A program made the translations under genes and the position numbers. Source: a virus. Taken from it: a stretch of 21,939 nt of DNA. Under the pieces are notes generated by a model. It saw only the letters and a program-made list of their open reading frames with translations, had not been told where the DNA came from and searched no databases. Location of the stretch: positions 1 to 21,939 of IMG/VR virus record IMGVR_UViG_3300046007_014117; one strand, 5' to 3'. Shown here piece by piece: positions 381 through 20,206 of this stretch (position 1 is the stretch's first letter; every line of letters begins with the position of its first letter).

Positions 381-385
381 CCTTT
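381..385 (-). promoter_or_regulatory. Shine-Dalgarno site for the left-edge gene
   Basis: On the minus strand this reads AAAGG, seven bases before the ATG at 371-373. Its 5' part overlaps the TAA stop (384-386) of the upstream gene, so a ribosome terminating there would sit on the next initiation site. This supports the chosen start and suggests coupled translation. Confidence 0.5.
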
Positions 386-1775
386 ACTTTATTGTTACTA
401 TAGCTTCAACTAATCCGATATCGTCTGTTGTTTTTGATTCTAATGCACGACCTATGCTGTTGAATGCAGTCAAATCGCTGTAATTTGCTGCTTTGGCCAA
501 CCCATTGCCGGCTGCAACTAATCTGTCGCCTTTGTTAACTGTGCCAATAACACGAACTGGAACACGACCTGTTATTGCCACTGGTGGGTGTGTGGTGTCA
601 GGGCCTGCACCGCCGTTCATTAAAAAGGCAGCAGCAGTGCTGATTACGCCAAATACATTATTACTTAATGGATCCTTGACTTGCGTGATTTCAGCATCTC
701 CCCCTAACTCTACCACTGTACCTGGTTCGTAAAGTTGATCAGCTGCAAATCTTTCTGCAACGTCTGCATACAATGCAGTGGTTGCAGTGGCAAATATTCT
801 ATTGAAATAGTTACTGGCACTGCCGATATTGCCCACAGCATTTGATCCAGACTTATTGATGCTGCTGACTTCCAAGGCATTACCAAACCCCACAGTGGCA
901 TTGGCACCAAATGCTGTAAACACTGTGGTGTCTACTCCGCCATCGTTGACTTGAAAGATTATATTACCGTTGTTGGTCTGATTGGCAATGGTTATAGTAG
1001 ACCCCGACACAGTCATAGACAAATCACCATCGGTGCCAATTTCTAAACCATTGTCGTTGACAATGGTCACTGCATTCACTGTACTGGTGATATTACCAGC
1101 TACTGCAGTCGATCGCATGAATGCATTGGCATACAAACTTTCTAGCTGTTGACTATTCGTTGCTGTACCCTGGAATAATTGATCAACACCGGATATACTT
1201 GTGGCTAGAGTGATCCCTGGTCTCACTGTGGTAAATCCCGTTATACCAACCTGAGGAGTGAACGAAGCATCTTTACTGACTATGCCCACTACTTGATTTG
1301 CCACAAATAATTTTATAACCACATGATCAACCAGACTGGTATCCTGTATGGTGTCAACTATGGCCCCAGTGGTACCAGTTCCGGCAGTATAAGCCGGTCC
1401 AACCAGTATCCATGCCGAACCACTGTAAACATTCAATTGTTCGTTGACACTGTCATACCATAGATCGCCAACAGTAAGACCAGTGGCAGGAGCACTGGCA
1501 CTGGATGTGGCTCCGTTACATCTTTTAAAAGTTGTGCCATTATAAACATTGAGAGTATTATTGCTTTTATTAAACCATAATTGTCCGGTCAATGGTGCGC
1601 CCGGTGATGTAGTGTCGGCTGCATTTTCCAATAGATGAATAAAGTTTTCATCTAAAAATTCGCCATATCCGGCATAATTTTTTCCTACCAGTGTCATGTT
1701 ACTGGATGTATTAATTGTGCCATCGGCAATTGTTGCAAATACTGTACCGTCGGTTAAATTTATTGTATAAGCCAT
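384..1775 (-). CDS. Tail-fibre-like protein with GxLW repeats and a C-terminal fibre domain (463 aa)
   Basis: This predicted trimeric fibre or decoration protein probably extends from the baseplate or tail. Two copies of a short beta-repeat are seen near the N-terminus, GQLWFNKSNNTLNVYNGTTF (about 64-83) and GDLWYDSVNEQLNVYSGSAW (about 103-122). This G-x-L-W-[FY]-[ND] ... L-x-V-Y-[NS]-G pattern recurs in phage tail fibres. The middle is Thr/Ser/Val/Asn-rich with many short beta-strand patterns and almost no charge. The C-terminal 130 residues (334-463) begin ALYADVAERFAAD and contain VFGVIST, HPPVAITGRVPVRV and KGDRLV. Such a terminal domain is found at the ends of many phage fibres and somewhat resembles Peptidase_G2-type fibre ends; I cannot confirm any autoproteolytic site. 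The start has a good Shine-Dalgarno (GGAG at 1782-1785) and a late-promoter-like octamer 35 bases upstream. Its receptor, if any, cannot be read from the sequence. Confidence 0.85.
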   Translation of the reverse strand: MAYTINLTDGTVFATIADGTINTSSNMTLVGKNYAGYGEFLDENFIHLLENAADTTSPGAPLTGQLWFNKSNNTLNVYNGTTFKRCNGATSSASAPATGLTVGDLWYDSVNEQLNVYSGSAWILVGPAYTAGTGTTGAIVDTIQDTSLVDHVVIKLFVANQVVGIVSKDASFTPQVGITGFTTVRPGITLATSISGVDQLFQGTATNSQQLESLYANAFMRSTAVAGNITSTVNAVTIVNDNGLEIGTDGDLSMTVSGSTITIANQTNNGNIIFQVNDGGVDTTVFTAFGANATVGFGNALEVSSINKSGSNAVGNIGSASNYFNRIFATATTALYADVAERFAADQLYEPGTVVELGGDAEITQVKDPLSNNVFGVISTAAAFLMNGGAGPDTTHPPVAITGRVPVRVIGTVNKGDRLVAAGNGLAKAANYSDLTAFNSIGRALESKTTDDIGLVEAIVTIK

Positions 1776-1810: not shown

Positions 1811-1818
1811 TATTTATT
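1811..1818 (-). promoter_or_regulatory. T4-type late promoter element (AATAAATA)
   Basis: The minus strand reads AATAAATA, matching the NATAAATA form of the T4 late promoter (TATAAATA in T4) recognised by the phage late sigma and clamp system. It lies in the 41-bp gap between the 201-aa gene, whose TAA stop it overlaps by two bases, and the 463-aa fibre gene. With T4 spacing (element at -13 to -6), transcription would start near 1805, leaving a 29-30 base leader that contains the GGAG site. No separate -35 is expected in this class. The assignment rests on motif and position only. Confidence 0.55.
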
Positions 1819-2422
1819 ATGTTGCACTTAATTGAGTTAAAGTCTGAATTCTAATTGTGTAGTCAATTTGTATTTGACGATTTAAACTTTTTTGTACCGG
1901 ATGAAATATCACGTGTGTTAATAATCGTGTGGCATCTCCATCTCCGGTATACCCTTTTAGTCCCAACTCATCAAAAACAAATTCACCGTTGAAATTTGTG
2001 CTATTGTCAAATGCTTGTTGCCCGGCTGGCTCGCCGTAGTCCAATAAACAAGTCACCAAAATATCAGTATAGACTTGTCCAGCAGTATGTAGTACTGTCA
2101 TTTTGTTGTTTGCTGGGTCTGTATTGGCAGCAGCATTATCGTCTACAATCTTGAAATAAGTTTCGTTGTATAAATCGGTATTTTGTCCAGTGACATTTGG
2201 CGGCAGATATGTAATCACACCAGTAGGGTCTACACTACTTCCTCCATTACCAAATGCCATTGTGTAAATATAACCGGTTGTGCGATTTGCCAAAGTCTGT
2301 GCTAGACTTATACTCATATTTTCATAATGAATGGCATTTTGTTTTTCCACAAAGACTTCGCCGTTTTTGGGATCATATATTTTCAAAAAACCTTTGATAT
2401 CATAACTCATGGGTAAAATCAT
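1817..2422 (-). CDS. T4-like phage virion structural protein (201 aa)
   Basis: A small virion protein of a type encoded next to fibre and baseplate genes in marine T4-like phages; the assignment is by remembered resemblance, and its exact place in the particle is unknown. Visible landmarks are IKGFLKIYDPKNGEVFVEKQ (about 9-28), then NAIHYENMSISLAQTLANR, a Gly-rich turn MAFGNGGSSVDPTGVITYLP (about 55-74), and a beta-rich tail ending RQIQIDYTIRIQTLTQ. There is no signal peptide or membrane segment. I chose the first ATG (2420-2422) over the second at codon 5 because GGAG (2431-2434) lies eight bases upstream of it. The start overlaps the TGA of the 48-aa ORF (ATGA), and that ORF's last 20 residues are a near copy of residues 10-29 here, which suggests a tandem duplication. 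A 41-bp gap separates its stop from the 463-aa gene. Confidence 0.82.
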   Translation of the reverse strand: MILPMSYDIKGFLKIYDPKNGEVFVEKQNAIHYENMSISLAQTLANRTTGYIYTMAFGNGGSSVDPTGVITYLPPNVTGQNTDLYNETYFKIVDDNAAANTDPANNKMTVLHTAGQVYTDILVTCLLDYGEPAGQQAFDNSTNFNGEFVFDELGLKGYTGDGDATRLLTHVIFHPVQKSLNRQIQIDYTIRIQTLTQLSAT

Positions 2423-2565
2423 GACCTTTTCTCCACAAATACTTGTTTGGTATTTGGATCAAATACTTTAATATATCCGGAAAAAGTCAATGCAGCATGT
2501 TCTTGCTTGGCATTAGATTTTTTAACAGATTTTTCCAAATTCTTATTTTTTTGTTGCATTTTCAT
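2419..2565 (-). CDS. Small ORF (48 aa) duplicating the N-terminal motif of the next gene
   Basis: An uninterrupted frame runs from ATG 2563-2565 to TGA 2419-2421. It begins MKMQQKNKNLEKSVKKSNAK, a Lys/Asn/Gln-rich and probably disordered lead. It ends SGYIKVFDPNTKQVFVEKRS, which aligns without gaps to residues 10-29 of the downstream 201-aa protein, with 9 of 20 identical and most others conservative. The stop overlaps the next start (ATGA). The last codons contain that gene's Shine-Dalgarno GGAG, so translation here should influence the 201-aa gene. Its own ribosome binding site is poor (AT-rich, only AAG), and an alternative ATG sits at 2557-2559. It could be a genuine small protein, a remnant of a once full-length paralogue of the 201-aa gene, or a coupling leader. 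The paralogy is seen in the sequence; expression is inferred. Confidence 0.55.
   Translation of the reverse strand: MKMQQKNKNLEKSVKKSNAKQEHAALTFSGYIKVFDPNTKQVFVEKRS
2431..2434 (-). promoter_or_regulatory. Shine-Dalgarno site that decides the 201-aa start, inside the 48-aa ORF
   Basis: GGAG on the minus strand lies eight bases before the ATG at 2420-2422, within GTGGAGAAAAGGTCATG. It falls in the Val-Glu-Lys codons of the 48-aa ORF. This favours the first ATG of the 201-aa gene over its in-frame ATG four codons later, and supports coupling between the two frames. Confidence 0.6.
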
Positions 2566-2570
2566 TTTAT

Positions 2571-2578
2571 TATTTATC
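2571..2578 (-). promoter_or_regulatory. T4-type late promoter element (GATAAATA) before the 48-aa/201-aa pair
   Basis: The minus strand reads GATAAATA, an exact match to NATAAATA, five bases after the giant gene's TGA (2583-2585). With T4 spacing, transcription would begin at about 2565, the A of the 48-aa ORF's first ATG. That transcript would be leaderless for the small ORF but would give the 201-aa gene a leader of about 140 bases. The element may therefore mainly serve the 201-aa gene. Confidence 0.55.
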
Positions 2579-2582
2579 TTAA

Positions 2583-5500
2583 TCAAAAACCTCTAAAAAA
2601 CCTAGCTGCGTCAGTGTCGGTTTCTTGTAAAGCTAGACCATTGCTGGCTGTATTGGTGCCAGGTTGATACCAACTGAGTCCTTGTACCACTGCTATTACC
2701 ACTTCTTGTCCGTCGGGTGGGGCTTGATCAAACTCCACAGCAATTGGCTCATAATAGCTGATAAAATAATTATCTGATTGAAGTATACCCCCTATATAAA
2801 CTTGCAATGCCTGTTCTATGAATCCCGAGCTGTCAGCATAGTAGTTTAAATTTATATTGCTGGCCACAAACTTGATAGTGGACCCGTCGCCAATAAACAC
2901 ATCTTGCACAGTTCTATTTTGATACTGACTGTCCAACAAATTGCCCAGTCCCATGTCATAGACTGTGCTATTTGTCAAATGAGCTGCTGCTGCTGTGCCT
3001 GCTGTGCCTCTTCGTAGTCCCGAGATACTGTTTGTGGCTAGATCAACTGTCCTATAAGTAATTCTTTCTCCATTGACGGTAATTACACCCAATAGATTTT
3101 TGGATGGGTCTGGAATTTCAAGATTGGAGACATTATTGACATATATTGTGTCTGATTCGGCAGTGATATCACTGATTAGATATGTGGAGGAATTTTCAGT
3201 GATACGATAAGTCAACTGTAAACCACGCATGTCTTGAAAAATTCTAAAACCAATTGGGTCTGGTGTTATGCTATCTGTTACTTCTGTGATGACCACAACA
3301 TCGAGTATACCAACAACCCCAGAGGTAAGTATCAATTCTTGTCCCGACACTGTGAATCCAGCACCATAAAATAATCTATTTCCATTTAGTGTTACCCACA
3401 GTCTTTCTGGTTTAGTATAGACTTTATCCAGAATAAAATTATTCACAGATACACTGATGCCATCTGCAAAGTCAAAACTACCAGGAGTAAATGAAACACT
3501 GGCTGAATCAAAAGGTGCACTGTCATAGGGCTGATCTACTGCTATAGATGATGTTATAGGGCCAACATAAACTGTTGTCAACAGTCCTTGTTGTATTGTG
3601 TCATTCCAAGTAACCACAGTGATCACATCACCGATCAGTGGCAAGAAACTGGCACTGGGATTCCATTCCAATGTTACTGCGGATGTTCCTAGTCCACTGA
3701 AAGTGTAGTCTGCATCAGTAAATACTGCAATATCAATGACAGCACCTTCGTTGGGCGCCACTGTAAATAAAATTTCTCTAAGGTCGTCATCTGATACATA
3801 TGGTTCAACTGTGTAATCTATGCCCTGCACCTGAAGTTCATTATCAAGCCAGACCACAACATCACTGTTCAATATTGTGCTTTGGTTGAACCCCAGTCTG
3901 GTGGGCAATGTGAAACCGGTAGAACCATCAGCAATATACTTTGCACCAGCAGGCGGCCTAGCACGAACACCATTTCTTTCTACCACTGCCACTGCGGCAT
4001 TGATTCCCCCCATGTTGGCTGTCAACGCAAAACTCAATGTTGATCCATCAGCAGTGAAATATTCTGTAATAGGAGTTGACCAAGTTATCCCTTCTGCAAA
4101 ATAACTGCTGCCCAGGGCAGTAATACTGATATAATCATTTATGGTATAGGTATTGTCAAAATTGATTTCTGTATATCCATTGGCATCTTCAGAATAACTG
4201 TAACTATTGATTAATTCACCATTGACAAAAATAACAAATTCTTCAATCAAATCATACTGAACATCTATGGCGAGTTGATTGCCGATTTGATTGCCAATAA
4301 AACTTTGTCTATACAATTGATTTCCGCCACCAATTCCGTAGACAGATACCACTATGATGTCCCCGTCGCTGGCAGCAGGAAAACTGATATTATCTACTAT
4401 ATTGACCGTTTTAGTGACCCAATCTACCGTATAATGCACTCCTAATAACAAATCTCGCCGTTGAGTTTGATTAGAAACCAATACTTGTATGGGATCGTTG
4501 ACAACATTGGCAAATCCAACCGAAGTTGTTACTGGGTTGTCATAGACAAATTTTATGTAGCTCAATGGAAATCCGTGTCCGTCACCTTGCCAGTCTGCAC
4601 CGGGATTAGAGAACACACGAAAATCCAATGTGTCAAAGATACTACCCGGTACTAATTCTTCGGGTGCATGACTGCTGTACTGATCTATAAAGGCACCACC
4701 GGACACATTGATGTCACTGGTCCTAGTGCCCAAGTAAGTATCTAAGAAACTGCTTTCGTAATTCACATCAAGTGTAGTCAAATTGTCATTGAACATCAGC
4801 CCATAGACTTGTACCCCAGGATAACTTATACCGGACATTAATAATTCAAGATCTACTCCAATTTCGGTCTCGTTTGGTGCATAAAATCCCTTGGTTCGAT
4901 CTACACCACTTAATGTATTGGGGTTAACCGGAGCCCAGTTACTCAAACTAAAACTGCTGGACACATTATTTTGTATGGCGACCCATGCTCGATTGGCGTA
5001 TCTGACTTTTTGGCCGATCACATAGGTTATACCAGCTGCCCAATCTGTGATATCACTTTGGTACTGATATCTGTCAAATTTGATTGTGGTCTTTAATTGT
5101 CTTATCAGTGGATTGCCCATTACTGGTATTAACAATGCGCCTGATCCTGTGCCTGACACTGTTATAGTAGGAGTTAACAGATATCCACTACCTGGATCTA
5201 CCACTGTGACTTCGCTGATGGCCCCGGAGATATTGATATTTGCAGACAAAATAGCAGGGCTGGTACACTCGCCTACCACGGTTAAGATGGGCGGCTCAAC
5301 AAATCCTGTCCCACCATCCACAATATTGACATTGTCCATGGACAACTTATAATTGTCAAACCAATAACTGTATGGAGAAGTTGTCCATAATTGGCTGGTA
5401 GGTAATGTGTCGCTGTCTTGGTTTGCTGTGCCTGTTCCAGTGGCAGTACTAAGTGTATAGGGAGTCAGTATAGGGCTTATGAATTTTGGAACAACAAGAT

Positions 5501-8500
5501 TAGTATTGTAGTAGGCAGGTATATCAAAATCCAAAACATTCAAATCAGCAATATCAAATCCATTATATATCAAGTTTAATTCGCGAACCTGCACATGATA
5601 AGGCTTGACTTCTTGGATATAGTCAATGACAAATTCTTGATTGTCTCTATTGTAAATTTGATATGGTAATAGTTGCCTAATCTTGTGATCAACATCAATT
5701 AAACTGGTTTTATATAACCACTGTGGTGCCAGGGTTTCAGATAAAATGAAGTTAAACATCAATATCAAGCATCGATTTCTTTCTATCAATAAATCGTCAA
5801 TCAAGAGCTCTTGATTAATGGCTTCCAGTATTTTTCTAGTTTCTGTGACCGGTTCTTGATCAAAGTATTGAAAATCAAATACCTCAACATCAAAACCAAA
5901 TTTGCCATATTGGTAGTCCCAAATAGCTTGACTGATTTGTATTGTGCCGTTCTGCAAACCCACTCTGTTCCACCCGGTGGAAGTTTTCAAATAAATTTCA
6001 AAATTATCATTGGCATTAAATCTAACTTTGACACTGCTGCCAACTGGTAAAGTCAATGTGTCTAATTCGGAAGCATAGTCAATTTCTGCCACTGGTGTGA
6101 TCGAACTATTATAGCCAGGTAAATACCAATTTTGGTAACTCCAGTACTTTTTGGTATCATAACTCTGTACTCTGACCAATTGTAATGTTTCAAAAGTTTT
6201 GCTGGCTGTGACTTGGTTAATGGTCCAATAACCAAATTGTTCACTGTTTGTTTCTACTAGATATCTGTAGCCGACCGGAACAGCATCAAAATCTTGATAG
6301 CTTAATTCTTCTATATTGGCCACTTTTGCGTCCCAGGCACCAGTACTGCTAGATGGATAAGATTCGGCTGAATTTAGTAAATTAAAACTGCGCGATTCTG
6401 CAATGGGGTATTGACCAAGAATAGAATTAACTCTCTTTAAATAATTTTTTAATGCTGCAAATCTATCAACAAACATGCTTTGTCTTGGTCGGAAATTTAT
6501 TCCGTAACGATCAGCGGGCCTTAACAGCGGATCCGGTACTAGATTGCCCTGTGTGTCTGCACCACAAAAACTATCTAGTAATTTTCTGTAAAGATTGGGA
6601 GGTAAAAATCCATCAGGTCGATCTTGCGGTACCAGTTCATACTCAACATGCACAGGATTGTCGTTGAATTCTTTATCAAATTCTATTGATAAAATAGTGT
6701 CTTGTGCATTTATTATGCTCTCGCCGTTATAGATAGCAAAACTACTGGCATTTAAAAAAGCCAAATACGGAATGCCAGATGACTTGGGATCAGATATGTA
6801 TCTTTCTATAGCAGAGGTACTTAGAGTCTTTGCCTTTGCTGATTCAACAAAAGTATTGCCCCTGACCCAGAAATAATAGTTGGTTCTGACTACTCCGGAT
6901 GCATCAACATACCCTATGGCATTGAACGAAGACAACGATCTAGGGAAACCCGGACCGGTATACTGTGCAGGAGGTACTTCACTTTCTGTCCACTGATAGA
7001 CTTCTATCTGACTGCCAGGAAAAAGTTGACTCCATCTTGCTGCAGCATACTGTATATTATCCTGATTGGGATTAATAAATCTTGCATTGGTAGTATCCCA
7101 CCAAATTTTTCCTAATTGAGTGCCATTCCATCGTCGACCATAGTTGTTAACCGGCCCCACATTATAGGCAGCAGGATCAATGGCACCTATGTAATCTATG
7201 TTTTGTCTTGCTGCACCCAGTATTTTTCCTTGTAATGGATCAATAAAATCAAAAAAGTCAGTGCCTGGACTTTGTAGTAAATCATAAGCAAAGGCATTGT
7301 TGATTAATTTTATGTCAACAACAGGAGTTTCTTCTCTGATCACTGTCCAAGCTGGACTATTGTTGGAATTTACAAAAGTGTTAAATCTTCCATAGTTCAA
7401 TTCACTCAGAGTGCTGTCGCCCAGGTCATTGCCCGGACTGGTAACTAGTAAAGAATTTGCAGTATAGTCAACCACTTGTCCAAATTTATCCAAACTTTGT
7501 AATCCGGCAGCAGGATAGATCTGTTGTCCAAATACAAACAGATCTGGATTAGTTATGCTGCTGGATTGACTTGATAGTAAATCAAAGGTATACACTGCAC
7601 CGCTTTCGTTGGGCTGGGAATATACACTAGTGGCCAACCCATCGAAATAAGTATCTCCTCCATCAAAAGTCATGGGTATATAAGATGAATCACGGGGTGC
7701 ACCGATTACCAATATATTTGAGCTGTTTTCGATGCTGATCGATTCGCCAAATCTTGCAGATACTAGTGGCCTGGGACTGAGTATTGTCTGTGTCTGCACA
7801 AAAAGTTCTAGTCCCAATGCTGTGTAGACATTTGTTGAATTGACAAGACCCAGCCCGATCTGTAGTTCGTTCATTCGATTAACAGTGTCATTGATCAAGG
7901 ACAATGTGAGCACACCGGTAACAACTTGGATATCTGCTGTTGAAGGCGGAGGTGTGGTAAAAGTTATTGTTTTAGTAACTAGATTAATTGTATAGTCTAC
8001 ATTTTCGATTTGTAAAATATCATTTTTATAAACCAATGCAGTATAGGATGTGACATTTTGATATGCATTGTCGATGGAATATGTTTTTAATACACCATTG
8101 GGTTTAATAGTAATGTTGTCTGATATGCTGGCTTTGACATTAGGAACCGAAGCATTGACTTGATATTCAAAACCTATTAGATTAATTATGGCAGCCAAGA
8201 CACTGGTGGTTTTCAATTCCCAATAGTCAGTGTCGGATATCGGAGTAGATACTGGAACATCTTGTAAAGCTTGATATACACTGTAAATGCCGGCATTTAA
8301 AGTCAGTACCACAGTGGCAAATTGATAACTGCTGGCCGATGACCAAATGCCAGGAACAACAACATTAATGTTGTTGACTCTGAGACTGTCACCAGCTGCC
8401 AAAACAGGATTGGCCACTGTGGCAGAAATGGTGTTGTACATTCTAGCTTGGTTGACTATTCGTTCAACCTGACCCGGTTGTGGTGTTTCTCCATTGTTTC

Positions 8501-11500
8501 CAGGTACCCCAACATAAACACTGCAACTTCTATTACAGATTTTCACTGCAGAACCATATTCCGAATACTGTTGCGGATTCTCTGCTGTTAATTTTTCTAG
8601 ATAATTGAAACCATTGATGCTGATTTCAATCATATCGCCGACTTGTAGTGGATAGTCAATATCAATGGTGTTGGCACCTGTGACAGTGAAATTTCCACCG
8701 ATATTATAATCAGTATTGATCAAAATAGTGTCATTGACTTTGACTGTGATAGGTGTATTGAAATTAACTGTGGTTGTGTATAGAGTTTGATTTGCATCAT
8801 CCACAACAAATCTTTCAATTGTTCTTTCGAAAACATAGGCTGCACCCACATCGCTGATGGAGTCTACAGTATCGGTTTTGGCGCCTATCACAATTTGTGA
8901 ACCGTCGATACTGCAATCGATGTTTTGACCAAAGCCAGATCCTGCCACCGAAATAGGCGGTTCTAGTTTGTCCACATACTGATAGTATGTTTTTGCTCGA
9001 ATTATGATATTGTCACTGACAGATTTACTGGAAGAAAATGTTATTTGTTTGGTGGCATTATTAAAGGTATAATCAAAAAACGGTCGTTGTAGAATGTCAT
9101 TTATGGTAACAATAAAAGAATAGATATCAACGGCAGTATATAGATAATCACCGATCAAATAGCTGGCTGTGCCAGTTCCATAAAAACCATAGATAAATCT
9201 GCGTCTTATAGTCAATATTTGGTCATCAGCTGGTGCCACATTTAAAACTATGTTACTGGCGCCTACAGAATAATCACTCAAATTCAATAATTGATTGTCA
9301 AGAATAACCACTAATTGATTTGGTTTGGTACTGTCAATGACAATGCTGTCGTCGTAATTATATGATAAAATACTGCTGTCTGTTTTATATGCCACTGACT
9401 GCAATTGAACCGGTACTTGAGCAAATGCATACACACTGTTGATACCAGGTGCACCGATATACATCCACCGTTCATCAGTGCTGATAACTACACTTTTTCC
9501 AAACTCAGCAGATTCGCCAAGATCGTCAACTGGTAAACAAATTTGAGAAAATTCAAATGTGCTGCTGCCAGTCACTTTGTTCATCACAGCAACCAATCCC
9601 ATATTTGTTATGGCATTTATGTCACTCAACGGAGCACCAATGGCACTGTAGTCAATATTGCCTATGCTGACACTGCGACCAAAATCTTGTGTGCCCACTG
9701 CATTGCACTCAATTAGACTGTTGTTAATATAAGATCCAAAATTATTTTTAACATAGGTATAAACACCGCCATTGGAAGAATATGCTGGGCTTCCTATATA
9801 GGCATAGAGTCCCTGTTGTGATTGAGCAGCACTGACCCCATATAAACTGTCTACACTAGGTGTTTCTGCCGAAATTGATTGTCCTTGGATAAACACTTTT
9901 TGTTTTTCTAATACCTGCCAGGGCTGCGTTGAATTAGAAATCCAAATTTTGGCATCGGTTGTCAATTCATTTGCGTATGGTTGATCTATGATATCGCTGG
10001 CCTGTGTCACTCTGCAACTTTGTAAACTAAAGGCCACTCCTGTACCAGTTATGACCGTTTGATTGAGGTTTACAAATACATAGGCAATGATAATGGTATT
10101 GGGACTGGGAACTGACAGCACTCTATAGACACCGTCGATATTACTGTCAAAATATCTAATAATTATTTTTTGATCTCTGGTTAACCCATGATTTTGATTA
10201 AACAGCACCAATGCAGTACCATCTAAATTATCTCTGACTGCTATGACTGAACTGGCTATGCCAAATATTCTATATACATCCCAATCATAATTGTTTACTT
10301 TGGCCACCCAAATCAATTTACCCACATTGAGCTCGCCGAGGTAGGGATTCAACGCAGTTGGGTCATCTAAACTAAACACAGTAAAATCAACATCGTCGAA
10401 ATTCACAAAACCTGCACTGGGGAAACCTGCAGCAGGAGGCAACATTTCTCTAGTAGGCAATATGTTGGGATCGGTTATTAAGTAGCTAGATTTCCAAATA
10501 TTTTCAACCTGTATGGTTTGATCAGCGATACTGGATTGGCCTGGGTTGATTATTTGCACTGTGGCAGGATTTGAAGTCAAGTTAGCTCGATTTAATTGTA
10601 AATCAAAATAACTCCGATTGGCATTACTGCCGTATGTGGCTTTTTGTATTGCCCAATTTTCGTAGATATCAAATTGTGCCACTCCTTTGCCCAAATCTGC
10701 AAAGGAAAAAATTTCTGCAGAAGTGATAGTTCCTTTGGTTCCTAAAAATTGTCTATACAGATTTACTTGACTGACATCATTTAAATTCAGGGCAGTCATA
10801 TACTGTCTTGGCCTAAACCCAATGAGGCCATAGCTGAATATGTCTTGATCTTTTTCTAGGTTGGCATTATATACATCATAGCTATTGGCCAACTGATCAC
10901 TTTTGTCGGGCAAGTTAGGTAATAATCCTGTTTGAATTTCAGTATAGTCGCTTCTTTTCCATAGATTGTAATTGAAAGTTTCGCTGGGCTGGATTATTGT
11001 GTTTGCACTATAATATAAATTCTTGTATTCAACTATTTCTCCTTTGGAATATTTTTTTGTTGGTTCCCAATTTTGAATATTGTCTTGATTTAAAATGAAC
11101 CCCGGCGCATTGAGTTGACCCAACCAGTTTAGACTTGTAATTGCTGCAATTTTTAATCTGCTCTGTCTGGCACCAGTTGCGGGATCATATATTAGATCAG
11201 CAAAAATGCTACGATTGTCCAGCACACAGATATTTTCATAGTTAACTAAATTTACATTGAGATAATTGACAGTTTGATTATTTGTGGTTGTCAAAGTGAA
11301 TCTATTGTTGTCTCTATCGACAATTAGATTTTTTGTTGTGAGCGGAGATTTTTCCTGATCCAGGATGAGATTTTCCTGTGTTTGAACACTGACATCGTCC
11401 ACTATGGCATAGGGTCTTTCTACAACCAACCGATCGGCCGATGGGTTGAGATTGATCACACTATTGATGCCCCATCCTTGGGAATCCCAATATAAAAACT

Positions 11501-14500
11501 CTTTGACCATTTGTTGCCAGTCCAACACATAACCATTTTGATATTCTGTAAATTCAAAACCCAACGATTGCAGTCTGGCGCCGTAACTGATAAGAAAATC
11601 GGCCACACCACTGGTAGTGGTGTATTCATAACCATAGGGGATTTGTATAACTGTGTCGGTGTGACTGACACTCACGTTGACTGTCCGCCCACCAGCAGTA
11701 ATCGGAAGTGGTGGGCCAACATTTTGACTTGCCAGTATTTCAAAATAAGGTTTAGTTGTTCCGTAGCCGTATAGACTGTAACCATTGGCAGTTTTTTGTA
11801 TGATCACACTGCTGTAGGTTGCTCGATCAAATGGAACATTCTTGTAAAGAAATAAATTATAACTTTCATCGGGCAATAACAATCCGCTGTTGGTGCTCTG
11901 CGGGCTGCTTTTTTCAGTGAAAATCTGCAATAGATTTTTGGCAGTAAAGGCACCAAATCTATAGCATAATCTCACATCCAATGAACTGAGATCTTCTGTC
12001 AGTATTGTGGTGCTGTCCAATCCCGATTGTTGGTTGAAATCAACAATCCAGTTGATATAACTGGCTTTGCTGACACCATTGCCATAGATTTGTATTCCAC
12101 TGGCATTTAATCTAAATCTGTCATTCAATAAATATTGATCAAATTCGTTGTTGAATCTATATAAATCTCTATCAGCAAACAGCGAAAAGAATTCAGCCGG
12201 TCTGGTCAAGGCCAACAATCGCATGACACTGAACGGATAAGCACTGCTGGTTCTCCAGGCATTTTCCGCTGGCCCGTCATCACCAAATATCCATTGCTGC
12301 ACAAAACTGTTTTTGTCATAACTTGCAACCACACTGTAAAACGGACTCAATAATTGACCTTCAGATCCAGCAGGTATAACTTTGTTTAGATCAGGTCTGC
12401 GATATTTTTCAATTACATAAGTACCAGCAGGATCTCTGACTAGACCGGCTGCCAAATCGTCCCACAATACCAAATTACCAGCTGTGTAAGGTGCAGGACC
12501 ATATTGATCAGTCCACCAAGTAGGTTCCACCGAAAATCCCAACATTTCCCATGGACGGGTATTGGGGTAAATTGTATCATAAAAATAATTATATATGCCT
12601 CGCCAAGCGCCTATGCCCAATGCCTGTCCACTTAATTTATTTTGAGATTGAGCATAATTATAACTGAATTTATTTGATTGAATGAAGTTCTGTGTGCTAA
12701 AATCCAGTCTATTCCAACCAATCCAACTGAAAAAGTCAGGTGCCAATATGCTTGTTATTTCTTCCAAACTATAATCTGTGGTTCTGAATTGACCAGGTAT
12801 TACATCGGCTGCATCTATAGGGACCGGATTATTGTCCAATTTTAAATTGTTATAAATTCTTTTTTCAAATTCCAATAACAAATCGTCTCTGAAATCTTCA
12901 AATGCCACAGTGATAGAACCGTCGTGCCCTCTGATTACCAATGTGGGTTCTATATAGGTAGTGTCTAGGTAAATTTCAGGCACAGTGGCAGGATAAAGTC
13001 CTAATTTAGTTGGTGTATTTGGAATAAAACTGCCATAAGTGGTAGTGTATTCTCTAATAGATAAAACATCACCAACAGACAGTGTTGTTGTCACAGTTAT
13101 TGTGGGCGAGTCTACGCCCACTGTATAATCTATGCCTTTGATCAATTGTACATTGTTTAGATAGACTATCAAACCCAAATAATTTGCACTGGTAAAGTTA
13201 TAAGTCTGTATGGTGTCAAAAACATTCAGGCTGACAGGTGTGATGGTATAATTGGTTTCTGTGTAGACATTGCTGAAAGGCAACATATCAGACCAATAAA
13301 ATGGGCTGGCACTGGTCTTGTCAAATCCCAGTTGACTCAATATGTCGTTCAGTATATTCGGAATAGTCTGATTGGTATAGTCATTGGTCGCAGCCAAATT
13401 TAAAATTTGTGCTTTGACTTTTTCATATTCTCTACTGTTGTAATCTAATGCAGCAAATATATTAAACTGCTTGCTTCTAAAAAAGTATCCCGCCAAAGTC
13501 AACGGTGAGCTTTGTTGATTTATAACCAACCCATAGGGCAACACATTGCCCAAGTCTCTGATATTATTGGCACCGTTGATGTCACCGGCAAAATCGTTTA
13601 GATTTTCTGCAATACTTTCATAGTGCTGTCTAGCAGTGCCCAAAGTAAATGTTGACGAATTTTCATTAAATGGATTATTTTGTAAATTGGCAGGTATTTG
13701 ATAAAAACCATATGCACTGGGTTGATTACTCAAAGCCAATACTTCTATCAAAGCGTCGGTGGGTATATCTGTGCTGGACAGTGTGATTGTAGTATTATTA
13801 ATCTGTGTTGTGTAGGTAAATGTTCCCGGTATTTGATATACTCCTTCCACATAGATTTTCAATACTGGCACGTCTATGTCCAATTGATTCAAGACTTCAA
13901 TATCTAAAATCAAAGGCTGTGTGGGATCATATTTAAAACTAAATTGCTGATAAATCTGACTACGAGTAGCAGCGGTTTGCCAACCTATTCTGGGTGTATA
14001 GTTTGTTCTATCGCTATATTCTTTTAGAGTACCATTGCTGATTTTTAGAGTTTGACTCTGTTGATTGCCTACATAGACAAAACTTTGAGTATAAAAATTA
14101 TTGTCAAAGACAATGTCACCGATGTTGTTTAAACTGAGATATCCCAACGGAAATCCCAGTATGGGATCGTCTATTCCCACACCAATCTGATAACTGAAAA
14201 TCTTGCTACCGACAAAATTTGAACTGACATAAACTTCTTGATCACTGTAACTAATACCGGACAAGTCATAGACATCAAACAATGGGGCTTGATTAATGGA
14301 ATTTTTTTGTTGTGCTATAATCCAGTCAAGGCCGTTAAACCAATAGGATTTTCCTTGTGTGATACTTCCGTCCAGCGACACCACACAATTATTAGTCAAA
14401 ACTGTGTTTGCTTCCGTCAACAAAATTACCTCAGAACTGCTGTCTCCAGTGGGTTCAATAAATGACACAGTGTAAATCTTATTTTTCACATTATTGTCAG

Positions 14501-16340
14501 TGTCTGCTGCAAATATCACTCTGCTGCCATTTTCAAAAGTATATCCATCAACTGTGTAACTGGGTTGCCCATTTACTTGAGACAGTGCATCTGTGGTAGT
14601 GAAATCAACAATATTGACCGGGGGCAATGCCTGTGTGCCCATGTTGTACAGTTGTATTCCACCTCTAAATTCTAAAATAGGTCTTTTGGCTCTATATTCA
14701 TTGTTTAAGTCAGGGGTAGAATTATTGTATTCAGCAGTGGCGTTGATGACATCAACATGAAACCATCTATTTGTTCTAGACCAAGGATTAAGACTAGGAC
14801 TGTCCAGTGCCATCAACAAGTAATCTGGTCTTAGCGGTTGGTTGGGTTCTGTGCTGTCTATGTAAATTTCTGGTGTAATATAATCAATGACCGGTAACAG
14901 TTGAATAGCTGTTCCCACTCCAGCAACATAATATTCATTATTTTGATAACTGTCTGGCACCACCGAACCACGAAATATTACTTTTAAGTTGTTGGTGAAA
15001 ACCACTCCAGTTGGGCTGGTGTAGTTTGGTTTACCCAAAATGTCATTGATGAAAATTGTGTCGTTGCTGGTTGAAGTAATCAGTTTAATTACGCCAAAGA
15101 AATTGGGATTGGTGGCATCCTGGTAGTAGAGTGTATTAAACACTGCTGACAGCAGGGGAATTTTTTCCAGGTATTCGCTGTTGTTTTTGTACCATTGTGT
15201 GTTACTCCACTGTTGCCCGAAAAGAATATTTACTTTGTCATAAACAGAAATTGTCTGATAGGGTTCCACAGTCAAAAAGATATTGTTGTCAGTGTCATAA
15301 TTGTAGACAATTTTCCAGATGTTATAACGATCTTGAAAAGGCACCTGTGTGGCTTGATCAAACAGCAAACTATCGAAGCTGCCAGGTAATCCGTTATTGA
15401 CAGGCAATTGTGCAAGAGGATCAAATCTTGTAGTTAAAATCCATCCTTGATCAGTGGTAAACACTATGGTTTTTTGATCTAAACTTGTAATACCATCAAT
15501 GCCTTGTGGGTTAGCAGTTAAAAATTCGGAAAGATATACATTGTTGATATCTTCCAAAGACAATGATGTGGTCAATAGATCCACAGATCCCAGTAAAGGC
15601 AGATCATAGTAAAATTGCTGAGCATCAGCTGCAGGAACTGTAAAAGTTATGGTGCCATTGTTGATGCCGTTATTGTCCACCCCCAATATATCTCTACTGG
15701 AAATATTGGGGGTGGCAGCCAGGGTACCATTGATACCAGGCTCTAACTGTATCCAAAAGTTGTTGGGTGCTTGATCTAGTTGAAAGGTATAAGTGCCGCC
15801 GCGCAGTAGATAAATTGTGGGCCTATTTCCGGCCAATCCAGAAAATTCATAGCCCCTGTCAGTTCTGGTCACAATGAAATCATCAGTCAATGGAATTGCA
15901 GTTGAGCTGATGTCTACGGCATCCGGTCCGTTTGGTAACCAATAATATTGACTGAAGTTGATAAATTTATCAACATTGATAAATGGATCCCAGGCATAGT
16001 ATTCACTGTTGTAAAGCCTATCTGCCTGTGTAATATCAGCACCTTGTAGTTTTAATGCATCCAGTAGCCCAGGATAAGTTATCACATCTTTAATCACTGA
16101 TCTATCTTGATCCAACGAAACCACACCAGGTTCAAGTTGATAATCTGTTCTGGTTTTATCTAATTCTATGACATATCTGTCGCTGGGGTTAACACCGGGA
16201 CCAACTCTTCTACCAATGTATCCTTGTGTCTTTTTAAATTCCGGTTCTTGTGTTAATTGGTCAAGTGTGGCAGACAGAAACTGCCTATTGACAGGAGTTT
16301 GAAAAATTTCTGGTAAAAAATCAACTGTTTTCAAAGACAT
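2583..16340 (-). CDS. Giant multidomain baseplate/tail structural protein (4,585 aa)
   Basis: One unbroken frame of 4,585 codons. It follows gp6, the slot of T4 gene 7 (a 1,032-aa wedge protein), so a wedge or wedge-attached fibre role is inferred. Residues 1-150 (MSLKTVDFLPEIFQTPVNRQ ... WDPFINVDKFINFSQYYWLP) and about 3537-3587 (DVDHKIRQLLPYQIYNRDNQ, then EVKPYHVQVREL) resemble large virion proteins of marine T4-like phages. Other regions: an all-beta segment with TYTFQLDQAPNNFWIQLEPG (181-254); eleven degenerate beta-modules in three clusters (about 827-1096, 2343-2809, 3949-4553); seven FG-GAP-like motifs (2176-2977); three W...Y..G modules (1753-1797, 2663-2711, 3763-3806); paired GSGY repeats (3670-3744); and ITVNGERITYRTVDLATNSI leading to GLRRGTAGTAAAAH (4417-4450). 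No signal peptide or membrane helix is apparent. The start overlaps the gp6 stop (TAATG), with GGGG upstream. The ORF is certain; the role is inferred. Confidence 0.85.
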   Translation of the reverse strand: MSLKTVDFLPEIFQTPVNRQFLSATLDQLTQEPEFKKTQGYIGRRVGPGVNPSDRYVIELDKTRTDYQLEPGVVSLDQDRSVIKDVITYPGLLDALKLQGADITQADRLYNSEYYAWDPFINVDKFINFSQYYWLPNGPDAVDISSTAIPLTDDFIVTRTDRGYEFSGLAGNRPTIYLLRGGTYTFQLDQAPNNFWIQLEPGINGTLAATPNISSRDILGVDNNGINNGTITFTVPAADAQQFYYDLPLLGSVDLLTTSLSLEDINNVYLSEFLTANPQGIDGITSLDQKTIVFTTDQGWILTTRFDPLAQLPVNNGLPGSFDSLLFDQATQVPFQDRYNIWKIVYNYDTDNNIFLTVEPYQTISVYDKVNILFGQQWSNTQWYKNNSEYLEKIPLLSAVFNTLYYQDATNPNFFGVIKLITSTSNDTIFINDILGKPNYTSPTGVVFTNNLKVIFRGSVVPDSYQNNEYYVAGVGTAIQLLPVIDYITPEIYIDSTEPNQPLRPDYLLMALDSPSLNPWSRTNRWFHVDVINATAEYNNSTPDLNNEYRAKRPILEFRGGIQLYNMGTQALPPVNIVDFTTTDALSQVNGQPSYTVDGYTFENGSRVIFAADTDNNVKNKIYTVSFIEPTGDSSSEVILLTEANTVLTNNCVVSLDGSITQGKSYWFNGLDWIIAQQKNSINQAPLFDVYDLSGISYSDQEVYVSSNFVGSKIFSYQIGVGIDDPILGFPLGYLSLNNIGDIVFDNNFYTQSFVYVGNQQSQTLKISNGTLKEYSDRTNYTPRIGWQTAATRSQIYQQFSFKYDPTQPLILDIEVLNQLDIDVPVLKIYVEGVYQIPGTFTYTTQINNTTITLSSTDIPTDALIEVLALSNQPSAYGFYQIPANLQNNPFNENSSTFTLGTARQHYESIAENLNDFAGDINGANNIRDLGNVLPYGLVINQQSSPLTLAGYFFRSKQFNIFAALDYNSREYEKVKAQILNLAATNDYTNQTIPNILNDILSQLGFDKTSASPFYWSDMLPFSNVYTETNYTITPVSLNVFDTIQTYNFTSANYLGLIVYLNNVQLIKGIDYTVGVDSPTITVTTTLSVGDVLSIREYTTTYGSFIPNTPTKLGLYPATVPEIYLDTTYIEPTLVIRGHDGSITVAFEDFRDDLLLEFEKRIYNNLKLDNNPVPIDAADVIPGQFRTTDYSLEEITSILAPDFFSWIGWNRLDFSTQNFIQSNKFSYNYAQSQNKLSGQALGIGAWRGIYNYFYDTIYPNTRPWEMLGFSVEPTWWTDQYGPAPYTAGNLVLWDDLAAGLVRDPAGTYVIEKYRRPDLNKVIPAGSEGQLLSPFYSVVASYDKNSFVQQWIFGDDGPAENAWRTSSAYPFSVMRLLALTRPAEFFSLFADRDLYRFNNEFDQYLLNDRFRLNASGIQIYGNGVSKASYINWIVDFNQQSGLDSTTILTEDLSSLDVRLCYRFGAFTAKNLLQIFTEKSSPQSTNSGLLLPDESYNLFLYKNVPFDRATYSSVIIQKTANGYSLYGYGTTKPYFEILASQNVGPPLPITAGGRTVNVSVSHTDTVIQIPYGYEYTTTSGVADFLISYGARLQSLGFEFTEYQNGYVLDWQQMVKEFLYWDSQGWGINSVINLNPSADRLVVERPYAIVDDVSVQTQENLILDQEKSPLTTKNLIVDRDNNRFTLTTTNNQTVNYLNVNLVNYENICVLDNRSIFADLIYDPATGARQSRLKIAAITSLNWLGQLNAPGFILNQDNIQNWEPTKKYSKGEIVEYKNLYYSANTIIQPSETFNYNLWKRSDYTEIQTGLLPNLPDKSDQLANSYDVYNANLEKDQDIFSYGLIGFRPRQYMTALNLNDVSQVNLYRQFLGTKGTITSAEIFSFADLGKGVAQFDIYENWAIQKATYGSNANRSYFDLQLNRANLTSNPATVQIINPGQSSIADQTIQVENIWKSSYLITDPNILPTREMLPPAAGFPSAGFVNFDDVDFTVFSLDDPTALNPYLGELNVGKLIWVAKVNNYDWDVYRIFGIASSVIAVRDNLDGTALVLFNQNHGLTRDQKIIIRYFDSNIDGVYRVLSVPSPNTIIIAYVFVNLNQTVITGTGVAFSLQSCRVTQASDIIDQPYANELTTDAKIWISNSTQPWQVLEKQKVFIQGQSISAETPSVDSLYGVSAAQSQQGLYAYIGSPAYSSNGGVYTYVKNNFGSYINNSLIECNAVGTQDFGRSVSIGNIDYSAIGAPLSDINAITNMGLVAVMNKVTGSSTFEFSQICLPVDDLGESAEFGKSVVISTDERWMYIGAPGINSVYAFAQVPVQLQSVAYKTDSSILSYNYDDSIVIDSTKPNQLVVILDNQLLNLSDYSVGASNIVLNVAPADDQILTIRRRFIYGFYGTGTASYLIGDYLYTAVDIYSFIVTINDILQRPFFDYTFNNATKQITFSSSKSVSDNIIIRAKTYYQYVDKLEPPISVAGSGFGQNIDCSIDGSQIVIGAKTDTVDSISDVGAAYVFERTIERFVVDDANQTLYTTTVNFNTPITVKVNDTILINTDYNIGGNFTVTGANTIDIDYPLQVGDMIEISINGFNYLEKLTAENPQQYSEYGSAVKICNRSCSVYVGVPGNNGETPQPGQVERIVNQARMYNTISATVANPVLAAGDSLRVNNINVVVPGIWSSASSYQFATVVLTLNAGIYSVYQALQDVPVSTPISDTDYWELKTTSVLAAIINLIGFEYQVNASVPNVKASISDNITIKPNGVLKTYSIDNAYQNVTSYTALVYKNDILQIENVDYTINLVTKTITFTTPPPSTADIQVVTGVLTLSLINDTVNRMNELQIGLGLVNSTNVYTALGLELFVQTQTILSPRPLVSARFGESISIENSSNILVIGAPRDSSYIPMTFDGGDTYFDGLATSVYSQPNESGAVYTFDLLSSQSSSITNPDLFVFGQQIYPAAGLQSLDKFGQVVDYTANSLLVTSPGNDLGDSTLSELNYGRFNTFVNSNNSPAWTVIREETPVVDIKLINNAFAYDLLQSPGTDFFDFIDPLQGKILGAARQNIDYIGAIDPAAYNVGPVNNYGRRWNGTQLGKIWWDTTNARFINPNQDNIQYAAARWSQLFPGSQIEVYQWTESEVPPAQYTGPGFPRSLSSFNAIGYVDASGVVRTNYYFWVRGNTFVESAKAKTLSTSAIERYISDPKSSGIPYLAFLNASSFAIYNGESIINAQDTILSIEFDKEFNDNPVHVEYELVPQDRPDGFLPPNLYRKLLDSFCGADTQGNLVPDPLLRPADRYGINFRPRQSMFVDRFAALKNYLKRVNSILGQYPIAESRSFNLLNSAESYPSSSTGAWDAKVANIEELSYQDFDAVPVGYRYLVETNSEQFGYWTINQVTASKTFETLQLVRVQSYDTKKYWSYQNWYLPGYNSSITPVAEIDYASELDTLTLPVGSSVKVRFNANDNFEIYLKTSTGWNRVGLQNGTIQISQAIWDYQYGKFGFDVEVFDFQYFDQEPVTETRKILEAINQELLIDDLLIERNRCLILMFNFILSETLAPQWLYKTSLIDVDHKIRQLLPYQIYNRDNQEFVIDYIQEVKPYHVQVRELNLIYNGFDIADLNVLDFDIPAYYNTNLVVPKFISPILTPYTLSTATGTGTANQDSDTLPTSQLWTTSPYSYWFDNYKLSMDNVNIVDGGTGFVEPPILTVVGECTSPAILSANINISGAISEVTVVDPGSGYLLTPTITVSGTGSGALLIPVMGNPLIRQLKTTIKFDRYQYQSDITDWAAGITYVIGQKVRYANRAWVAIQNNVSSSFSLSNWAPVNPNTLSGVDRTKGFYAPNETEIGVDLELLMSGISYPGVQVYGLMFNDNLTTLDVNYESSFLDTYLGTRTSDINVSGGAFIDQYSSHAPEELVPGSIFDTLDFRVFSNPGADWQGDGHGFPLSYIKFVYDNPVTTSVGFANVVNDPIQVLVSNQTQRRDLLLGVHYTVDWVTKTVNIVDNISFPAASDGDIIVVSVYGIGGGNQLYRQSFIGNQIGNQLAIDVQYDLIEEFVIFVNGELINSYSYSEDANGYTEINFDNTYTINDYISITALGSSYFAEGITWSTPITEYFTADGSTLSFALTANMGGINAAVAVVERNGVRARPPAGAKYIADGSTGFTLPTRLGFNQSTILNSDVVVWLDNELQVQGIDYTVEPYVSDDDLREILFTVAPNEGAVIDIAVFTDADYTFSGLGTSAVTLEWNPSASFLPLIGDVITVVTWNDTIQQGLLTTVYVGPITSSIAVDQPYDSAPFDSASVSFTPGSFDFADGISVSVNNFILDKVYTKPERLWVTLNGNRLFYGAGFTVSGQELILTSGVVGILDVVVITEVTDSITPDPIGFRIFQDMRGLQLTYRITENSSTYLISDITAESDTIYVNNVSNLEIPDPSKNLLGVITVNGERITYRTVDLATNSISGLRRGTAGTAAAAHLTNSTVYDMGLGNLLDSQYQNRTVQDVFIGDGSTIKFVASNINLNYYADSSGFIEQALQVYIGGILQSDNYFISYYEPIAVEFDQAPPDGQEVVIAVVQGLSWYQPGTNTASNGLALQETDTDAARFFRGF
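2683..4500 (-). repeat. C-terminal cluster of five degenerate beta-modules in the giant protein
   Basis: Five copies of a roughly 40-50 residue unit lie here: LVSNQTQRRDLLLGVHYTV (from about 3949), FVNGELINSYSYSEDANGY (about 4032), VWLDNELQVQGIDYTVEPY (about 4160), VTLNGNRLFYGAGFTVSGQ (about 4311) and VYIGGILQSDNYFISYYEP (about 4509). Each follows the pattern V-x-[LVI]-[ND]-[GND] ... [DG]-[YF]-x-V ... [TEIL]-[IV]-x-[FL] ... G-[DE]-x-[IV]-x-[IV]. Two further clusters lie at residues about 827-1096 and 2343-2809. The strand pattern resembles the N-terminal domain of T7-type tail fibres (the NQDYRFT segment), which is a suggestion only. Confidence 0.6.
4920..5053 (-). other. CBM5/12-like W...Y..G module 3 within the giant protein
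   Basis: Residues about 3763-3806 read ITDWAAGITYVIGQKVRYAN, then RAWVAIQNN and finally LSNWAPVNP. This W-x(5)-Y-x-x-G-x-x-V-x-Y ... W-x-A ... N-W spacing is that of chitin/carbohydrate-binding modules of the CBM5/12 type. The same spacing occurs in many phage fibre proteins, so sugar binding is inferred. Confidence 0.5.
5110..5332 (-). repeat. Paired G-[ST]-G-[FY] beta-repeats in the giant protein
   Basis: Residues about 3670-3744 contain VDGGTGFVEPPILTVVG and VDPGSGYLLTPTITVSGTGS, two copies of the pattern V-[DN]-x-G-[ST]-G-[FY]-x-x-P-x-[IL]-T-V about 40 residues apart, joined by ISGAISEVTV. Such GSGY...PT(I/V)TV repeats are widespread in phage structural proteins and form beta-structure. 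Confidence 0.6.
7915..9312 (-). repeat. Middle cluster of four degenerate beta-modules, interleaved with FG-GAP motifs
   Basis: Four copies start at residues about 2343 (VILDNQLLNLSDYSVGASN), 2406 (VTINDILQRPFFDYTFNNA), 2528 (VKVNDTILINTDYNIGGNF) and 2766 (VYKNDILQIENVDYTINLV). They share V-x-[LIV]-[ND]-[ND]-x-[LI] ... D-Y-[ST]-[VIF] and end in strands such as QILTIRR, NIIIRAK and MIEISI. They alternate with propeller blades, so they probably project from it as inserted domains. Confidence 0.6.
8210..8353 (-). other. CBM5/12-like W...Y module 2 within the giant protein (divergent)
   Basis: Residues about 2663-2711 begin GIWSSASSYQFATVVLTLNA, continue with IYSVYQAL and end DTDYWELKT. The W-x(5)-Y ... 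Y-x-[VA] ... YW spacing follows the other two modules, but the central glycine is missing. This is the weakest of the three. Confidence 0.35.
10950..11085 (-). other. CBM5/12-like W...Y..G module 1 within the giant protein
   Basis: Residues about 1753-1797 read IQNWEPTKKYSKGEIVEYKN, then LYYSANTIIQPSET and NLWKRSDY. The W-x(5)-Y-x-x-G-x-x-V-x-Y-x-x-x-Y-Y-x-A ... W spacing is a good match to small carbohydrate-binding modules. It lies well before the propeller region. Binding of a host glycan is inferred, not shown. Confidence 0.5.
13040..13859 (-). repeat. N-terminal pair of degenerate beta-modules in the giant protein
   Basis: Two copies lie at residues about 827-870 (IYVEGVYQIPGTFTYTTQI) and 1057-1096 (VYLNNVQLIKGIDYTVGVD). 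The second is one of the clearest examples, ending in SVGDVLSIREY. They share the pattern described for the C-terminal and middle clusters and are separated by about 190 unrelated residues. Confidence 0.55.
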
Positions 16341-19816: not shown

Positions 19817-20191
19817 TTATATAAAACTGGCATTTCTCTGAATTTGATCAAAAAATATAGACAGTGTTTCAGAAGTATTGCTAGGGACCACTGTGATTTC
19901 TATGTCAAGCAGTATACCGTTGTCCTGTGGGTAAAGATTTACTGATTGCAAATATATTCTAGGATCACCTCCTGTTACTCTTTGTATTTCCTCAATCATG
20001 ACAGCTTCTACTGGCTGTGTTAGATTTTCAAATACAAAATCCCAAATTTTAGTACCATAATCTGGCCTGCCTGGCAATTGCCCCTGTCTAATATTAAAGG
20101 CATTTAATAGATCTCGTTTAATAAGTTCGAAGTCAACTAATGTAAATTTTTTGTTTTTGTCGATGGTACTAAAACCAATAAAAGTAGTCAT
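19817..20191 (-). CDS. gp25: Baseplate wedge protein gp25 (GPW/gp25 family, 124 aa)
   Basis: This wedge subunit bridges the gp6/gp7/gp53 wedge to the inner baseplate and is part of the minimal sheath-initiation core conserved across contractile systems. The length (124 aa against 132 in T4) and landmarks fit: FSTIDKNKKFTLVDFELIKR (7-26), the family core GRPDYGTKIWDFVFENL (41-57) and IEEIQRVTGGDPRI (66-79), where DPR stands in for the usual EPR, followed by LDIEITVVPSN near the end. Older annotation calls this family 'lysozyme', but no catalytic residues are evident and the role is structural. The gene starts 15 bases after the 531-aa gene ends, with a weak AGGG ribosome site. Gene 6 follows after a 51-bp gap that holds a late-promoter element. 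Confidence 0.95.
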   Translation of the reverse strand: MTTFIGFSTIDKNKKFTLVDFELIKRDLLNAFNIRQGQLPGRPDYGTKIWDFVFENLTQPVEAVMIEEIQRVTGGDPRIYLQSVNLYPQDNGILLDIEITVVPSNTSETLSIFFDQIQRNASFI

Positions 20192-20206
20192 AGTGTATTT
20201 ACCCTA

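What the first reader, a model, noticed from the sequence alone, without database searches (positions are those of the whole stretch)
2419..2565. Unlisted 48-aa ORF that copies the N-terminal motif of the gene it overlaps
The apparent intergenic gap between the giant gene and the 201-aa gene holds a 48-codon frame. Its last 20 residues (SGYIKVFDPNTKQVFVEKRS) align without gaps to residues 10-29 of the 201-aa protein, with 9 identities. It ends in an ATGA overlap with that gene and carries that gene's GGAG. A duplicated head without a body, ending exactly at the downstream start, suggests a collapsed tandem duplication, or a head module kept as a small protein or translational leader.
Basis: partly seen in the sequence, partly recalled or inferred. 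Interest (0 to 1): 0.65.

Follow-up and report, generated by a model that had tools for sequence, protein, structure and literature searches.

The report
Conserved hairpin-only baseplate microprotein
A 48-residue reading frame overlooked in a jumbo-phage tail-baseplate gene cluster is a real, ancient, selectively maintained gene: a free-standing copy of the first beta-hairpin of the protein encoded next to it, found at the same place in all 80 close relatives examined and in more distant jumbo phages.

Summary
The 48-aa frame 2419-2565 ends in an ATGA overlap with the 201-aa gene, carries its GGAG, and its last 20 residues match residues 10-29 of that protein (9/20 identical; profile E 1.2e-8). 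It is not a local accident. All 80 IMG/VR relatives keep it, 44-55 aa long. The hairpin codons are under strong purifying selection (omega 0.11, against 0.10 for the same motif in the 201-aa gene). The penultimate Arg is kept in 67/68 distinct copies. Related head-only ORFs occur in more distant jumbo phages (PA5oct gp356, Atu_ph07 gp179). In two relatives its N-terminus is fused to the 201-aa body; in two others a GIY-YIG endonuclease lies between the genes. No full-length paralogue was found.

So 'head kept as a small protein' is supported and 'recent collapsed duplication' is not. A purely regulatory leader is unlikely, though coupling of translation remains plausible. The 201-aa partner resembles tail-collar/baseplate-arm proteins (phage A511 gp105, phi812 arm). 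Best guess: a baseplate-assembly microprotein that docks through the same hairpin as the arm protein and is made with it from a T4-type late promoter. The docking role is inferred; no expression or binding data exist.

The parts
2419..2565 (-). small ORF, 48 aa: disordered N-terminus plus beta-hairpin head
   Evidence: omega 0.11 in the hairpin codons; AF2 hairpin residues 31-35/42-47, pLDDT about 95
2422..2481 (-). hairpin head SGYIKVFDPNTKQVFVEKRS, homologous to residues 10-29 of the 201-aa protein; penultimate Arg conserved
2419..2422 (-). ATGA stop/start overlap with the 201-aa gene
   Evidence: conserved in nearly all relatives
2431..2434 (-). GGAG ribosome-binding site of the 201-aa gene, inside the small ORF
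2571..2578 (-). GATAAATA, T4-late-promoter-like box, 5 nt before the small ORF's ATG
   Evidence: gp55-like sigma in relatives
1817..2422 (-). 201-aa baseplate-arm-like protein (PHROG 11259) whose N-terminal hairpin is the paralogue
2336..2395 (-). residues 10-29 of the 201-aa protein: the second copy of the hairpin

Best explanation
The 48-aa frame is a genuine late gene. It arose by an ancient partial duplication of the 5' end of the neighbouring baseplate gene (or by splitting of a longer ancestor). Its product is a microprotein: a disordered 20-25 residue tail, in most relatives a P[ND][ED] box at a fixed place, and the beta-hairpin that forms the first two strands of the 201-aa baseplate-arm-like protein. 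It is transcribed from a T4-type late promoter placed almost on its start codon and is translated ahead of, and coupled to, the 201-aa subunit. It most likely acts in baseplate assembly by docking through the same hairpin surface as the 201-aa protein, either as a minor subunit filling an equivalent site or as an assembly factor holding that site. SHOWN here: homology, conservation, purifying selection, position, fused and split forms. INFERRED: expression, promoter activity, coupling, docking and role in assembly.
For: All 80 relatives have it at the same site, 44-55 aa, frame open. Hairpin omega 0.113 (2dlnL 426 against omega 1), similar to 0.098 in the paralogous head; N-terminus 0.46. Shifted frames carry stops in 37 and 63 of 68 sequences. 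Penultimate Arg 67/68 by several codons. P[ND][ED] box in 63/68 smalls, always 14 residues before the hairpin Ile, and in 0/68 mains; the translations show the same register in PA5oct and five deep lineages. Head-only ORFs in PA5oct, Atu_ph07, L092-L101, L103, L132. In L102/L130 the small profile matches the fused main protein over nearly its whole length, which ties the two products functionally. AF2: hairpin at pLDDT about 95 with a disordered tail. Partner fold: HFTV1 tail Z 9.7, phiKZ gp139 7.6, A511 gp105 7.4, phi812 arm 7.2; [quoted passage not shown] The PA5oct homologue sits in a block where every other product is noted as found by ESI-MS/MS.
Against: PA5oct gp356 is the only member of that block without the ESI-MS/MS note, so presence in virions is not supported; at 41 aa it could simply be missed. 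Phosso, SCTP-2, Vibrio 2.275 and 121Q-type phages lack the gene, so the partner can do without it. No binding, expression or structural data. The phylogeny allows one origin or two, and the hairpin profile comparison is mixed in deep lineages.
Confidence: 0.5

Rival explanations
1. Translational leader: the ORF exists mainly to bring ribosomes to the 201-aa gene by termination-reinitiation and to set its output; the peptide itself is incidental.
For: ATGA overlap and internal GGAG conserved in nearly all relatives; the late-promoter-like box lies 4 or 7 nt before the small ATG in 60 of 68, so a message starting there begins with the small ORF.
Against: Amino-acid sequence upstream of the ribosome site is conserved (omega 0.11) and homologous to the partner's own head, which a leader does not need. 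The ribosome site is no more paired than in synonymous shuffles (mean rank 0.52). In Atu_ph07 and L132 an endonuclease gene separates the two, and in L092 a gap of about 330 nt, yet the head ORF persists.
Confidence: 0.1
2. Assembly chaperone or decoy: the microprotein occupies the head-binding site of the arm protein or of its partner during assembly and is absent from the finished virion.
For: Only product of the PA5oct baseplate block not noted by ESI-MS/MS; same hairpin as the partner; small genes labelled chaperone are listed with the tail genes of other myophages (63-64 aa in Deep-Blue/Vp4, PMC11406892).
Against: Non-detection of a 41-aa protein is weak evidence; no data on binding.
Confidence: 0.28
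3. Relic of a homing-endonuclease event: a GIY-YIG gene entered the 5' end of the gene, the old head was stranded upstream, the body regained a head, and the endonuclease was later lost.
For: Atu_ph07 and L132 have exactly [head ORF][GIY-YIG/NUMOD3 gene][full gene].
Against: The endonuclease forms are nested in a clade where most members have none, so insertion between two existing heads is simpler; purifying selection rules out a mere relic in the window's clade. As an origin it remains possible.
Confidence: 0.08
4. Chance open frame with an accidental resemblance.
For: Short, and unannotated in some records.
Confidence: 0.01

Closest known systems
Pseudomonas phage PA5oct gp356 (YP_010678858.1, 41 aa) and Agrobacterium phage Atu_ph07 gp179 (YP_009611844.1, 42 aa), both 'hypothetical protein'
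   Same: same place between the giant virion gene and the 201-aa-like gene; same hairpin head and a short tail
   Different: PA5oct version abuts rather than overlaps the next gene; the Atu_ph07 version is followed by a GIY-YIG endonuclease and has a different C-terminus; neither record connects it with its neighbour
PHROG 11259 (unknown function), the 201-aa protein's family
   Same: the small protein is a paralogue of its N-terminal hairpin
   Different: it lacks the whole body, and the small protein itself has no significant PHROG or Pfam match
Listeria phage A511 gp105 / phi812 arm segment / phiKZ gp139 baseplate proteins
   Same: the 201-aa partner resembles their fold (Z 7.2-7.6)
   Different: Z below 8, sequence identity 10-14%; I found no head-only companion described for them
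Small genes labelled tail chaperone in other myophages (e.g. the 63-64 aa gene in Deep-Blue/Vp4)
   Same: tiny gene beside baseplate/fibre genes
   Different: not described as a copy of part of its neighbour (PMC11406892)

Membership tests
Conserved protein-coding small gene | open frame and synonymous-biased substitution across relatives | tested here: met
   frame open in all 81 loci; hairpin omega 0.113 with the ribosome-site codons excluded (the three GTG-overlap loci L015-L017 were read by eye)
Conserved protein-coding small gene | product detected | not testable with these tools
   PA5oct gp356 has no ESI-MS/MS note; supplementary tables of the Atu_ph07 proteome were not available
Paralogue of the PHROG 11259 head | significant profile similarity to the head | tested here: met
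   E 1.2e-8 in the window, 3.7e-10 to 9.2e-5 in seven long contigs
PHROG 11259 (full protein) | match of the 48-aa protein to the family model | tested here: not met
   no match to phrog_11259; best hit of any kind E 0.046 to another family
Regulatory leader peptide | message structure hiding the downstream ribosome site unless the leader is translated | tested here: not met
   no more pairing than synonymous shuffles; only thermodynamic folding was tested
Regulatory leader peptide | stop/start overlap with the regulated gene | tested here: met
   ATGA in the window and nearly all relatives
A511 gp105-like baseplate arm protein (for the 201-aa partner) | shared fold | tested here: inconclusive
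   Z 7.4, rmsd 3.4 over 119 residues; no Foldseek match below E 0.001 in PDB
T4-type late transcription unit | TATAAATA-like box and a gp55-like sigma | tested here: met
   TAAATA in front of 65/68 small ORFs; gp55-like sigma in 11 of 12 relatives, E 4.5e-8 to 0.003; promoter activity itself not testable here

The most novel reading that the evidence does not exclude
A widespread class of 'head-only' viral microproteins: a phage keeps a detached N-terminal hairpin of a baseplate subunit as its own gene, read from a promoter placed so close that its message is leaderless, and uses it to compete with or cap the full subunit so as to set arm number or assembly order; in some lineages the split is undone by recombination between the two heads.
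Probability: 0.2. Interest if true: 0.65.

Novelty: new variant of a known kind. Interest (0 to 1): 0.5.

Why it matters
It adds a conserved gene to the baseplate cluster of a large, mostly uncultured group of jumbo phages and shows that a fragment of a structural subunit can be kept as an independent protein over very long times. Because split, fused and absent states all exist in nature, with cultured representatives for split (PA5oct, Atu_ph07) and absent (Phosso, 121Q), the function of the fragment is directly testable. It is short enough to be missed by gene finding.

Tried and rejected
Recent duplication or gene conversion: rejected, small heads are not closer to their own neighbour. Full-length paralogue at this position: none seen; seven long contigs have only two heads each. 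RNA structure hiding the ribosome site: no signal. A simple pairwise NG86 dN/dS gave 0.47-0.58 for the head, but it selects low-dS pairs from a saturated set and was replaced by a codon-model fit on a tree. Sequence search of the 201-aa family in PDB: no hit. tblastn of one small protein in the phage collection: nothing significant, too short. Hairpin profile test for one or several origins: mixed (its register for the L092 row was wrong and that row should be ignored). Expression from virion proteomics: the Atu_ph07 main text names neither protein and supplements could not be opened. The first look had scored L103 and L132 as lacking the small ORF; a closer look and the profile search corrected this, so the label counts printed (4 changes) are out of date; by hand the corrected labels still need 4 (two gains) or 5 (one gain).

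Full report
OBSERVATION. The window holds a minus-strand baseplate cluster of a jumbo myophage: 531 aa, gp25-like (19817-20191), gp6-like (16340-19765), a 4585-aa giant (2583-16340), the small ORF (2419-2565), the 201-aa protein (1817-2422) and a 463-aa protein (384-1775). The small ORF is as described: 48 aa, ATGA overlap, internal GGAG, 9 identities in 20 to residues 10-29 of the 201-aa protein. Its profile finds that head at E 1.2e-8.

CONSERVATION. tblastn-confirmed relatives of the 201-aa protein in IMG/VR (80 loci, 75-92% identity) all have an ORF at this place (L015-L017 with a GTG overlap, read by eye from the sequences). The products are 44-55 aa: a variable Gln/Pro/Lys-rich tail, then usually RPNExGxISV, then GFVKIFDPKTKEVFVEKRA. 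Aligned columns and counts are: penultimate Arg in 67/68 distinct copies with several different codons, P[ND][ED] in 63/68 at exactly 14 residues before the hairpin Ile, and in none of the 68 adjacent full-length proteins. The window and its nearest relative L001 have lost that box. A codon model fitted on the tree of the 201-aa gene gives omega 0.113 for the hairpin with the ribosome-site codons left out, 0.133 for the box and 0.46 for the tail; the paralogous hairpin in the 201-aa protein gives 0.098. The tree's branch lengths were rescaled, so absolute rates are rough, but the test against omega 1 is overwhelming (2dlnL 426).

DEPTH. Head-only ORFs recur at the same place in more distant phages: PA5oct gp356, Atu_ph07 gp179, and contigs L092-L101, L103, L132. 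They are absent from Phosso, SCTP-2, Vibrio 2.275, L104-L107 and the 121Q/RaK2/CBB group. The translations show the Pro-acid box in the same register in L093, L094, L095, L097 and L101. L102 and L130 have no separate small ORF; their main protein begins with a tail and box like the small one (KPNERANIKVTGHVLI, APNEIATLKVTGHLLI), and the small profile matches them over positions 3-48 and 6-48 whereas ordinary main proteins match only from about position 23-32. I read these as fusions by recombination between the two heads; a pre-duplication ancestor is possible but they sit inside the two-head clade, with moderate support. In Atu_ph07 and L132 a GIY-YIG/NUMOD3 endonuclease gene lies between the heads. 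Whether the small gene arose once or twice is not settled.

ANATOMY. AlphaFold2 gives a confident hairpin (residues 31-35 and 42-47) and a disordered first 20 residues; the 201-aa protein is predicted well (pLDDT 84, pTM 0.81) with the same hairpin as its first two strands. That fold matches viral tail-collar fibre models in BFVD and, less surely, solved baseplate proteins: HFTV1 tail Z 9.7, phiKZ gp139 7.6, A511 gp105 7.4, phi812 arm 7.2. [quoted passage not shown] Role by fold is therefore a lead, not a test.

EXPRESSION SIGNALS. A TAAATA box lies 1-7 nt before the small ATG in 65 of 68 distinct loci, 4 or 7 nt in 60, against mostly 18-27 nt, usually with a GGAG, before the gene that follows the 201-aa gene. 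Such boxes are described as putative late promoters before structural genes in the related phage CBB (PMC5259590), and gp55-like late sigma factors are found in 11 of 12 relatives. A T4-type start point would fall at or just before the small ATG (own knowledge of T4 late promoters), so the message may be leaderless; this is inference. The 201-aa gene would then be second on the message and coupled through ATGA. The ribosome site is not specially occluded.

MECHANISM. The best reading is a baseplate-assembly microprotein sharing a docking surface with the arm protein. The strongest circumstantial support is the fusion in two relatives and the selection on the hairpin. Whether it stays in the virion is open: the PA5oct homologue is the one product of the gp353-gp360 block without an ESI-MS/MS note. 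The leader model explains the overlap but not the sequence conservation. A relic or chance model is excluded for the window's clade.

NOVELTY. The homologues exist in public records as hypothetical proteins, and the duplication of part of a neighbour is a known evolutionary route; what appears new is the link between the two genes and the split/fused/absent pattern. I found no paper describing it in the library searched, which does not hold most subscription journals.

Noticed in passing
L082/L091 (Atu_ph07 gp178) and L132:2301-3020: A GIY-YIG/NUMOD3 endonuclease gene sits between the head-only ORF and the full-length gene in two separate lineages; in Atu_ph07 it overlaps both neighbours.
   Followed up: partly
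20187-20203 (minus strand): The gp25-like gene also has a GGTAAATA box 4 nt before its ATG with no room for a ribosome-binding site, as the small ORF does: possible leaderless late messages.
   Followed up: partly
384-1775 (minus strand): The 463-aa protein ends in a Peptidase_G2/intramolecular-chaperone-like region (Pfam 26.6 bits, cut-off 25), suggesting a self-cleaving fibre or spike.
   Followed up: no
20207-21802 (minus strand): The 531-aa Gly/Ser/Ala-rich protein has no significant PHROG or Pfam match.
   Followed up: no
L092:2668-2998: About 330 nt lie between the head-only ORF and the main gene, with a second TAAATA box before the main gene; it may be the scar of a lost gene.
   Followed up: no
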